A stretch of 36,467 bases of DNA from Myxococcales bacterium (GTDB lineage: Bacteria; Myxococcota_A; Polyangia; Polyangiales; Polyangiaceae): positions 1-36,467 of the forward strand of contig JAEUKG010000014.1 in assembly GCA_016794325.1 (NCBI GenBank). Direction: 5' to 3'. Of the stretch, positions 20,371 through 22,003 are shown piece after piece (position 1 is the stretch's first letter; each line of letters opens with the position of its first letter). Below the pieces are notes generated by a model. The model was given only the letters and a program-made list of their open reading frames with translations, searched no databases and was not told the DNA's origin. The position numbers were made by a program, and so were the translations under genes.

Positions 20371-20407
20371 ATGAGAAGGCTCGCTCACACGGGAGGAGCC
20401 TTCTCAT
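20371..20407 (+). promoter_or_regulatory. 12-bp perfect hairpin covering the parA-like start codon
   Basis: Arms ATGAGAAGGCTC (20371-20382) and GAGCCTTCTCAT (20396-20407) are perfectly complementary around a 13-base loop. The right arm includes the first two bases of the ATG at 20406 and the last part of the GGGAGGAG ribosome site; the rest of that site is in the loop. In mRNA this stem would hide the start codon, so translation is probably controlled by opening it. A short spaced repeat bound by a DNA-binding protein is the alternative. Confidence 0.65.
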
Positions 20408-21674
20408 GGCCGGAATGTCCGAGAGCTGCAGCGTGTGTAGTCGGCCCTTCGAGGTCCAGTTCCGCTACCAGATGGAGGAGAAGGACGGGGGCTTCCTCTT
20501 CTTCTGCTCGCAGGAGTGTCAGGGCAAGTCGGTGCGTGGCGAGACCACGAGCGGCGTGCTCTGCGACGCTTGCGGAAAGCGCTTCGTCGTCGACCTCGTC
20601 TCGCAGGTGGTGAAGACCAAGGCGGGCCGCAAATACGCGTGCTCCGACGGCTGCCGATCGCAGGTGCTCGCGGAGGCCGGGGGCGTGCGCCTCGCCGCGT
20701 TCGCCCAGGCGCCCGAGGCCCCCGAGTCCGTGCCCTCGCTCGAGTGCGCCGACGAGCCGAGCGAGCCCGCGCGCCCGGCCGCCGAGGCCCCGGCGTCGAG
20801 CCGCTCGCCGGTGACGGCGGCGCGGACGAGCGCGGCGCCGGCGGCGGAGCGGCGAACGATCGCCGGGCCTCGCCGCCTCGCGATCTTCAACCACAAGGGC
20901 GGCACCGGCAAGACGACGACCTCGGTCAGCATCGCCGCCGGCCTCGCCGCCCGCGGCCTCAAGGTCCTCCTCGTCGACACCGACTCCCAGGGCAACGTCG
21001 GCGTCTCGCTCGGGGTGAAGGCGGAGCGCACGCTCTACCACCTCCTCGTGATGGGGCTCAAGCCGAGCGCGGCCGCGGTCAACGTCCGGGAGAACCTCGA
21101 CCTCATCGTGTCGAACGAGACCCTCGCCGCGGCGGAGCTCTACCTCGCCGGGCGGCAGAACCGCGATCGCATCCTCAAGGACCGCCTCGCGTCGGCCGCC
21201 GACCAGTACGACGTCGTGCTCCTCGACTGCTCGCCGTCGCTGTCGCTGATGAACCAGAACGCGCTCGTGTACGCGGACGGGATCCTCGTCCCCGTGGCCT
21301 GCGACTTCTTGTCGCTCGTCGGCGTGCGGCAGGTCATCAAGACGGTGAAGAACGTGAACTCGCTCCTGCACCACCCGGTGCAGATCTACGGCGTCCTGCC
21401 GACCTTCTACGACGCCCGCGCGCGCATCTGCCGCGACGCGGTCGACACGTTGAAGGAGCACTTCGGCGATCGGTGCCTCGAGCCGATCCGTTCGACGACC
21501 AAGATCAAGGAGGCGCCGGCGCAAGGAAGGACGATCTTCGAATACGCGCCCGACTCCAACGCCGCCGAGGACTACATGCGCGTCGTCGACCGCATCGTCT
21601 TCGGCCAAGCCGCGGCCAAGTCCGCGCCGCCCGCGTCGGTCGACGCGGACGAACCGATGGCGAGCGTGGGCTGA
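20406..21674 (+). CDS. ParA-family ATPase with two N-terminal TRASH/FCS-like zinc fingers
   Basis: A 422-residue protein. Residues 8-38 and 53-83 are two zinc fingers of identical spacing, C-x2-C-x22-C-x3-C (C8, C11, C34, C38 and C53, C56, C79, C83), the pattern of TRASH/MYM/FCS fingers. A Pro/Ala/Glu linker (100-150) follows. Residues 157-410 are a ParA/MinD-type ATPase with the deviant Walker A KGGTGKTT (164-171), switch DTDSQGN (191-197) and Walker [12 protein letters not shown]. ParA proteins position DNA or large complexes using ATP-driven binding to the nucleoid or partners. No parB or parS is visible nearby; instead a ribbon-helix-helix-like gene follows after 14 bases. The ATG at 20406 has GGGAGGAG at the right distance; both lie in a hairpin. 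An ATG at 20415 is a less likely alternative. Confidence 0.88.
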
Positions 21675-21688
21675 CGAGGAGGACGAAC

Positions 21689-22003
21689 ATGGCAGCGCGA
21701 GAAGAAGGATCAGGGCTCGCGGGCGCGCGCGTCCTCGACGGCGACGAGGTGGAGGGGGTGCTCTCGGGGTCGTTCTACACCCCGGCGTCTTCGCCCAGGC
21801 CCGCGAAGAAGAGCGATCGCCCCGAGGACAAGCCGCTCCACTACAAGGTCATCTGCATCTCGATGTACACGAACGACCTCGAGCGCCTCGACGGGATGGT
21901 CGAGGCCCTGAAGAAGCGCGGCCTCACGAAGGCCAACCGCAGCGCGCTCATCCGCGCCGCGCTCGAGCAGATCGATCTCGACAAGGTCCCGAAGGGGATG
22001 TGA
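21689..22003 (+). CDS. Ribbon-helix-helix-like small protein, probable ParA partner
   Basis: A 104-residue protein. The first 48 residues are polar and look disordered (including a Ser/Pro/Lys-rich [13 protein letters not shown]). Residues 50-100 fit a ribbon-helix-helix fold: a strand [16 protein letters not shown], a helix [12 protein letters not shown] and a second helix [16 protein letters not shown] proteins bind DNA as dimers, and small RHH proteins serve as centromere-binding or adaptor partners of ParA in plasmid systems (ParG, omega type). The gene starts 14 bases after the ParA stop with GAGGAGGA as ribosome site, so the pair is almost certainly co-expressed. Whether it binds DNA or a protein cargo cannot be told from sequence. 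Confidence 0.75.

What the first reader, a model, noticed from the sequence alone, without database searches (positions are those of the whole stretch)
20406..22003. ParA ATPase fused to tandem zinc fingers with an RHH-like partner and no ParB
Two C-x2-C-x22-C-x3-C fingers with identical spacing precede a complete ParA domain, and a small RHH-like gene follows at once. This is not the chromosome parABS layout; it looks like a dedicated positioning system in which fingers dock a protein or nucleic-acid cargo. It is my best candidate for an undescribed system.
Basis: partly seen in the sequence, partly recalled or inferred. Interest (0 to 1): 0.7.

Follow-up and report, generated by a model that had tools for sequence, protein, structure and literature searches.

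The report
Zinc-finger ParA paired with RHH protein
Many myxobacteria carry, next to their ordinary chromosome-segregation genes, an undescribed second two-gene module in which a ParA motor protein wearing zinc fingers is always paired with a small DNA-binding protein, probably to position some still unknown cargo on the chromosome.

Summary
Window 20406-21674 encodes a 422-aa protein with two Cys4 fingers of identical spacing (C-x2-C-x22-C-x3-C) before a complete Soj-type ParA ATPase. A 104-aa ribbon-helix-helix (RHH)-like protein starts 14 bp downstream. No ParB is nearby, but the same genome has an ordinary adjacent parA-parB pair on another contig, so this is an additional system.

It is real and conserved. 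Orthologs occur in 18 of 20 related genomes and, more patchily, across Myxococcota. The RHH gene follows the finger-ParA in all 64 distinct loci with downstream sequence, and all 30 loci found through the RHH profile carry a finger-ParA. Finger-ParAs form one clade apart from the genomes' own Soj proteins (100/99 support). The fingers are FCS/MYM-type treble clefs; some lineages keep only one.

In Sandaracinaceae and other relatives, though not in the window's own species, the operon is preceded by a 12-bp-phased palindromic operator (CTT-N4-AAG).

Best reading: a chromosomal ParA/RHH module that works like type Ib partition or archaeal SegAB, with an autoregulated RHH adaptor. It fails defining features of both. 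Cargo and finger ligand are unknown. No description was found in the open literature.

The parts
20351..20375 (+). promoter-like element TTTGCC-N13-TATGAG upstream of the operon
   Evidence: Matches the TTGGCC-N13-[TG][AG]TG element upstream of many Polyangiales copies: spacing of exactly 13 in 17 copies, pattern in 17 of 85 upstream regions against 0.18 in shuffles.
20371..20407 (.). perfect 12-bp inverted repeat (ATGAGAAGGCTC ... GAGCCTTCTCAT) overlapping the -10-like element, ribosome-binding site and start codon; possible species-specific operator or hairpin
   Evidence: 12 bp or longer arms in 3 of 1000 shuffles; RNA fold -25.7 kcal/mol, z -3.95. Not seen in sister species.
20406..21674 (+). 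finger-ParA gene, 422 aa
   Evidence: ORF; Pfam AAA_31 4.5e-49; 18 of 20 relatives; AlphaFold mean pLDDT 86.5.
20427..20519 (+). zinc finger 1 (C8, C11, C34, C38), FCS/MYM-type treble clef
   Evidence: Invariant cysteines; Pfam zf-FCS in 15 of 18 ortholog N-termini, best 2.8e-8; pLDDT about 86-94 by 10-residue block.
20562..20654 (+). zinc finger 2 (C53, C56, C79, C83), same spacing
   Evidence: Invariant or nearly invariant cysteines; pLDDT about 91-95 by block; absent in one class-level lineage.
20865..21605 (+). ParA/Soj ATPase domain, deviant Walker A HKGGTGKT
   Evidence: Soj alignment 154-398; Foldseek to Soj TMt 0.93; K164, K169, D193, R338, R362 invariant.
21689..22003 (+). RHH-like partner gene, 104 aa
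   Evidence: Directly downstream of finger-ParA in all 64 distinct loci with downstream sequence and in all RHH-profile hits.
21734..21778 (+). conserved tail motif [LF]D-x-DEV-x2-VLSG-x-FY of the RHH partner, candidate docking peptide
   Evidence: V24, L25, F29, Y30 in at least 90% of 45 orthologs; no conserved Arg/Lys in the first 39 residues.
21830..21988 (+). RHH-like DNA-binding domain (strand-like YKVICIS, helix 61-76, helix 84-94)
   Evidence: Invariant Y52, C56, I57, S58, R84, S85, R89; model; Pfam RHH_1 weak.

Best explanation
A dedicated, vertically inherited chromosomal ParA/RHH module of myxobacteria. The ATP-bound finger-ParA dimer binds the nucleoid non-specifically (inferred from conserved Soj residues). 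The RHH dimer binds a 12-bp-phased palindromic operator at its own promoter, so it autoregulates the operon (sites shown statistically in relatives; binding inferred). Through its tail the RHH protein contacts ParA or the fingers and triggers ATP hydrolysis, giving nucleoid-guided positioning, as in type Ib partition or archaeal SegAB (inferred by analogy). The FCS zinc fingers are an added docking platform, most likely for a protein partner, since the ParA body already binds DNA (inferred). The system coexists with canonical ParABS, so it does something other than basic origin segregation. Whether it organises the chromosome around its own site or positions a protein cargo is open.
For: Constant gene pair: 64 of 64 distinct untruncated loci and 30 of 30 loci brought in by the RHH profile, 21 in the class sample and 9 more in the phylum sample. 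Finger-ParA is a single clade apart from the genomes' Soj proteins (100/99). Catalytic residues and arginines in the regions aligned with Soj are conserved. Operator: CTT-N4-AAG in 25 of 85 upstream regions against 2.1 in shuffles (max 11), double sites 13 against 0.30 (max 3); CTT repeats peak at 12 and 24 bp. The exact double site is otherwise at about background genome-wide and mostly inside coding frames, as expected for an autoregulatory site. Separate adjacent ParAB in the same genome. Type Ib and SegAB have the same gene order and upstream sites (PMC5016525, PMC12284271).
Against: No conserved Arg/Lys in the RHH tail, whereas known activators of ParA/MinD ATPases carry a positively charged N-terminal peptide (PMC7993993; PMC5016525). 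The operator is not found in the window's own species or its closest relatives. Two of 20 relatives and about two thirds of the sampled class lack the system, so it is not essential to the phylum. RHH assignment rests on weak sequence scores and a monomer model. No test of ParA-RHH contact was possible.
Confidence: 0.5

Rival explanations
1. Protein-cargo positioning system: the fingers bind a protein complex (divisome, polar or motility machinery) and the RHH protein is only the operon's repressor. In Polyangia, which lie outside the group reported to have PomX and PomY, it could stand in for PomXYZ.
For: [quoted passage not shown] In the window's genome the finger-ParA is the only good ParA besides Soj. 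The exact operator is essentially confined to the operon promoter. Fingers are conserved but their linker is not (about 21-206 residues), as for a mobile docking module.
Against: Strict one-to-one pairing with RHH over the whole phylum is more than a local repressor usually shows. The RHH tail motif is conserved and lies outside the DNA-binding part. Some genomes lack the system altogether.
Confidence: 0.25
2. Regulatory unit: ParA acts mainly as an ATP- or zinc-responsive co-regulator of the RHH transcription factor, without transporting anything.
For: Operator at the promoter; FCS/TRASH-type fingers are related to metal-sensing folds (zf-FCS, weak TRASH); RHH repressors are common.
Against: The exact operator is not found at other intergenic sites above background, so a regulon is not visible. 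ParA-fold proteins used only as co-regulators are rare (general knowledge). The residues for ATP cycling are kept.
Confidence: 0.15
3. Remnant of a plasmid or phage partition module captured by the chromosome, retained for stability or incompatibility functions.
For: Layout of type Ib plasmid partition; a viral contig encodes a lone RHH relative beside a RuvC-like resolvase (L166).
Against: No plasmid or phage record matches the RHH protein. One clade, present from the window's family to other classes of the phylum, with conserved chromosomal neighbours such as purH and a pseudouridine synthase in close relatives, argues for vertical descent.
Confidence: 0.07

Closest known systems
Archaeal SegAB (Sulfolobales)
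   Same: Chromosomal ParA-type ATPase gene followed by a small RHH DNA-binding protein; palindromic sites just upstream of the operon (PMC12284271).
   Different: SegA has no fingers (general knowledge); SegB shows no sequence match to this RHH family; SegB binds some 35-46 scattered chromosomal sites, which were not seen here.
Type Ib plasmid partition (TP228 ParF/ParG, pSM19035 delta/omega)
   Same: ParA upstream of a small RHH protein with an unstructured N-terminal tail; repeats at the promoter; RHH represses the operon (PMC5016525, PMC9499535).
   Different: Here the locus is chromosomal, ParA has an N-terminal pair of zinc fingers, the tail lacks a conserved arginine finger and instead has an acidic/aromatic motif.
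Chromosomal ParABS (Soj/Spo0J)
   Same: The ATPase domain is closest to Soj (38% identity over 244 columns in the structure match).
   Different: No ParB partner here; the genome's real ParAB is elsewhere and forms a separate clade.
CdbA/CdbB of Myxococcus xanthus
   Same: Small myxobacterial RHH proteins tied to chromosome organisation (PMC7156744).
   Different: 67 and 86 aa, no ParA partner reported; the RHH profile finds no CdbA chain in the PDB set, although 6SBW/6SBX were deposited.
PomXYZ of Myxococcus xanthus
   Same: Orphan ParA-type ATPase with dedicated partners, in the same phylum.
   Different: Partners are PomX and PomY, not RHH; no fingers on PomZ are mentioned in the papers read; [quoted passage not shown]

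Membership tests
Type Ib partition | ParA-type ATPase gene followed directly by a small RHH protein gene | tested here: met
   14 bp apart in the window; same order in 64 of 64 distinct loci. RHH itself is supported but weak.
Type Ib partition | small ParA without an N-terminal extra domain | tested here: not met
   422 aa with about 150 residues before the ATPase, including two folded fingers. That type Ib ParAs are small is general knowledge.
Type Ib partition | direct/inverted repeats upstream of the operon bound by the RHH protein | tested here: inconclusive
   12-bp-phased CTT-N4-AAG sites in many relatives, none in the window's own group; binding untested.
Type Ib partition | conserved arginine finger / basic residues in the RHH tail | tested here: not met
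   No position above 40% Arg/Lys in residues 1-39 of 45 orthologs; basic residues only in a variable linker, residues 40-48.
Type Ib partition | plasmid location and plasmid stabilisation | tested here: not met
   No match among 72,556 plasmid records; conserved chromosomal neighbours.
SegAB | RHH partner homologous to SegB | tested here: not met
   Profile search of the PDB sequences finds no RHH chain at E<=10; SegB structures are reported solved.
SegAB | scattered SegB-type sites across the chromosome | tested here: inconclusive
   Exact double sites are at about the level of the reversed-pattern control and mostly in coding frames; three possibly intergenic sites in genome G018. Weaker sites could not be tested.
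ParABS | adjacent ParB with parS sites | tested here: not met
   The only ParB found in the genome is on contig C1211 beside a different ParA; none within the flanks of the other loci.
zf-FCS / MYM-type zinc finger | Cys4 treble clef with FCS-type motif | tested here: met
   15 of 18 ortholog N-termini match PF06467 at E<=1, best 2.8e-8; the window copy alone is below threshold at 0.32; model has hairpins plus helix.
zf-FCS / MYM-type zinc finger | zinc binding | not testable with these tools
   Cysteines conserved, no metal assay.
ParA/Soj ATPase | deviant Walker A with signature lysine, catalytic Asp, Soj fold | tested here: met
   HKGGTGKT with K164/K169 and D193 invariant; Foldseek to Soj.
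CdbA/CdbB | sequence kinship to CdbA | tested here: not met
   No match in the PDB sequence search.
PomXYZ | PomX and PomY partners | not tested
   No PomX/Y search was run; the literature places them in Cystobacterineae.

The most novel reading that the evidence does not exclude
A new class of ParA positioning system in which zinc fingers, rather than a ParB or coiled-coil partner, recruit the cargo, and an RHH protein with an acidic/aromatic peptide activates the ATPase by a route unlike the known basic-peptide activators. In Polyangia it could be the missing guide for division-site or polar placement.
Probability: 0.25. Interest if true: 0.85.

Novelty: new variant of a known kind. Interest (0 to 1): 0.62.

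Why it matters
ParA ATPases position chromosomes, plasmids, carboxysomes and chemoreceptor arrays, and each new partner type has revealed a new cargo. This one is found in cultivable genera such as Sorangium, is retained across a phylum beside ordinary ParABS, and yet appears undescribed. It offers a bacterial chromosomal counterpart to SegAB, a predicted operator that can be tested by gel shift, and a conserved activator tail that breaks the basic-peptide rule. How Polyangia, which lie outside the group reported to have PomX and PomY, organise division and polarity is open, and this is the only additional good ParA found in the window's genome.

Tried and rejected
CdbA homology was the first lead from the literature; rejected because the RHH profile finds no CdbA chain and lengths and context differ. 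A centromere-like array was sought by scanning 12 genomes for the double operator; no cluster, counts at about control level, and nearly all other hits lie in coding frames. The same operator was sought in the window's own family and not found; the 12-bp inverted repeat there is a possible substitute but is not shared by relatives. A mobile-element origin was tested against plasmids, phages and viral contigs; only a lone RHH relative on one viral contig. Foldseek with the RHH monomer model was uninformative, as expected for an intertwined dimer. Linkage to the ParAB locus was examined: the two lie about 10 kb apart in two relatives, but no ParB is within the flanks of the other loci, so it is not a general rule.

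Full report
What is there. The window is a whole contig (C440) of an 8.7-Mb draft genome in 1300 contigs, 88% complete, whose named relatives are Polyangiaceae, Labilithrix, Sorangium and Sandaracinaceae. The first protein has two Cys4 fingers with the same C-x2-C-x22-C-x3-C spacing, a disordered linker, and a complete Soj-type ATPase (Pfam AAA_31 4.5e-49; Thermus Soj 8.6e-45). AlphaFold gives high confidence to both fingers and to the ATPase and low confidence to the linker. Foldseek places the ATPase with Soj/ParA.

What the fingers are. The window copy alone scores poorly, but 15 of 18 ortholog N-termini match the Pfam FCS/MYM-type finger, best 2.8e-8. A profile search of solved structures brings classical C2H2 fingers and the treble-clef finger of ribosomal protein eL24, all at weak E-values. 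Seven of eight cysteines are invariant in 46 orthologs and the eighth is at least 90% conserved. The linker to the ATPase varies from 21 to 206 residues, as expected for a tethered docking module. No other protein of the genome was found to carry the finger pair.

What the partner is. By sequence the window protein is only marginally RHH (E=0.11), but 21 of 45 orthologs match RHH_1 at E<0.1. The model shows an N-terminal helix (18-25), a long low-confidence stretch and two C-terminal helices after a strand-like segment. A profile comparison with three RHH proteins from related genomes gives P=0.0026 in register, against 0.13 for reversed sequences. RHH is therefore likely, not proven. The tail has a conserved motif [LF]D-x-DEV-x2-VLSG-x-FY and no conserved basic residue.

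Distribution and linkage. Strong orthologs occur in 18 of 20 relatives and in a long list of named genomes, all labelled as myxobacteria or deltaproteobacteria (one is called only 'uncultured bacterium'). Among 66 distinct loci, the RHH gene is directly downstream in all 64 that have downstream sequence; the other two end at the contig edge. Searching instead with the RHH profile, 21 of 59 genomes of the class and 18 of 78 of the phylum sample have it (the samples overlap), and all 30 distinct hit loci carry a finger-ParA beside it. One class-level group has a single finger. Two-finger forms also occur in the most distant members, so two fingers are probably ancestral with a later loss, though the tree does not prove it. 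Finger-ParAs form one clade (100/99) separate from the Soj proteins of the same genomes (one Soj row, L196, has a very long branch). No plasmid or phage record matches the RHH protein. The genome-contig scan used peptides of the window protein and would miss diverged forms, so absence outside Myxococcota is not shown.

Relation to ParABS. The genome's only ParB found is on contig C1211, directly beside a different ParA, with the typical ParB N-terminus (RRALGRGLDALLP). ParB homologs were found at 17 of the 18 Soj loci examined. The finger-ParA module is therefore an addition. In two relatives (G004, G006) the module and a Soj-type ParA lie about 10 kb apart; in the other loci no ParB lies within the flanks held.

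Regulatory DNA. Two conserved elements precede the operon. First, a promoter-like TTGGCC-N13-[TG][AG]TG, with spacing of exactly 13 in 17 copies; the window has TTTGCC-N13-TATG. Second, in Sandaracinaceae and other relatives outside the window's own group, a palindromic CTT-N4-AAG repeated with a 12-bp period near the start of the gene: 25 of 85 upstream regions against 2.1 in shuffles (max 11), double sites in 13 against 0.30 (max 3). The regions come from related genomes, so these counts are not independent events, but the shuffles and the near-absence of the motif elsewhere in the same loci make chance unlikely. Genome-wide, the exact double site is at about the level of a reversed control pattern and nearly all other hits fall inside long coding frames. 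This fits an autoregulatory site rather than a dispersed centromere. Three possibly intergenic extra sites in one genome (G018) are left open. The window's own species has none of these sites; it has instead a 12-bp perfect inverted repeat over the -10-like element and start codon, found at that length or more in 3 of 1000 shuffles and not shared by relatives.

How it probably works. Shown: architecture, strict pairing, single origin apart from Soj, intact ATPase residues, operator statistics. Inferred: ATP-dependent nucleoid binding, RHH binding of the operator, RHH-ParA contact, activation of ATP hydrolysis, docking by the fingers. The analogues are type Ib partition, where the RHH protein is both repressor and centromere binder (PMC5016525, PMC9499535), and archaeal SegAB, a chromosomal ParA/RHH pair with palindromic sites upstream of the operon (PMC12284271). 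Known activators of ParA/MinD ATPases use positively charged N-terminal peptides (PMC7993993); the tail here does not, so the contact may be different or may run through the fingers.

Membership. It is not filed as type Ib (fails small ParA, basic tail, plasmid location), as SegAB (no detected kinship to SegB), as ParABS (no ParB), or as CdbA. It works like the first two. The ATPase is a member of the ParA/Soj superfamily, and the fingers are FCS-type by profile.

Novelty and limits. No open-access paper was found that describes a finger-bearing ParA or this pair; most subscription literature and preprints are not covered. The cargo is unknown, and whether the RHH protein touches ParA could not be tested. 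Interest is moderate to high because the pair is widely conserved in Myxococcota, present in cultivable genera, and gives direct, cheap tests.

Noticed in passing
20371-20407: Perfect 12-bp inverted repeat spanning the -10-like element, ribosome-binding site and start codon of finger-ParA; as RNA it folds at -25.7 kcal/mol (z -3.95). Not seen in sister species.
   Followed up: partly
L166:4755-5180 (IMG/VR contig IMGVR_UViG_3300031712_000068): A viral contig encodes a lone relative of the RHH protein (61% over 44 residues) just upstream of a RuvC-like resolvase, with no ParA seen in the stretch listed: possibly a phage copy of the host regulator.
   Followed up: partly
22043-22978 (-): Predicted secreted cysteine-rich protein made of about eight CPP...C-x2-C repeats, no Pfam match, converging on the RHH gene.
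   Followed up: no
17874-18569 (+): Protein whose only Pfam domain is sigma-70 region 4 (PF04545, 2.1e-8), upstream of purH; conserved in position in about 21 related loci.
   Followed up: no
L099:7935 (+) and 9682 (-); G143:C13: In this genome exact double operator sites lie both upstream of the operon and about 280 bp downstream of the RHH gene, flanking it; the downstream one lies in a possible short coding frame.
   Followed up: partly
G018:C90:230, C173:2329, C1224:2050: Three operator-like double sites in possibly non-coding DNA away from the operon in one relative: candidates for scattered SegB-like sites.
   Followed up: partly
G004:C213 and G006:C13: In two relatives the finger-ParA module lies about 10 kb from a Soj-type ParA locus with ParB nearby.
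   Followed up: partly
upstream regions of L045, L046, L049, L075: In several Polyangiaceae the promoter-like element ends within about 15 nt of the start codon, which suggests a very short or leaderless transcript.
   Followed up: no
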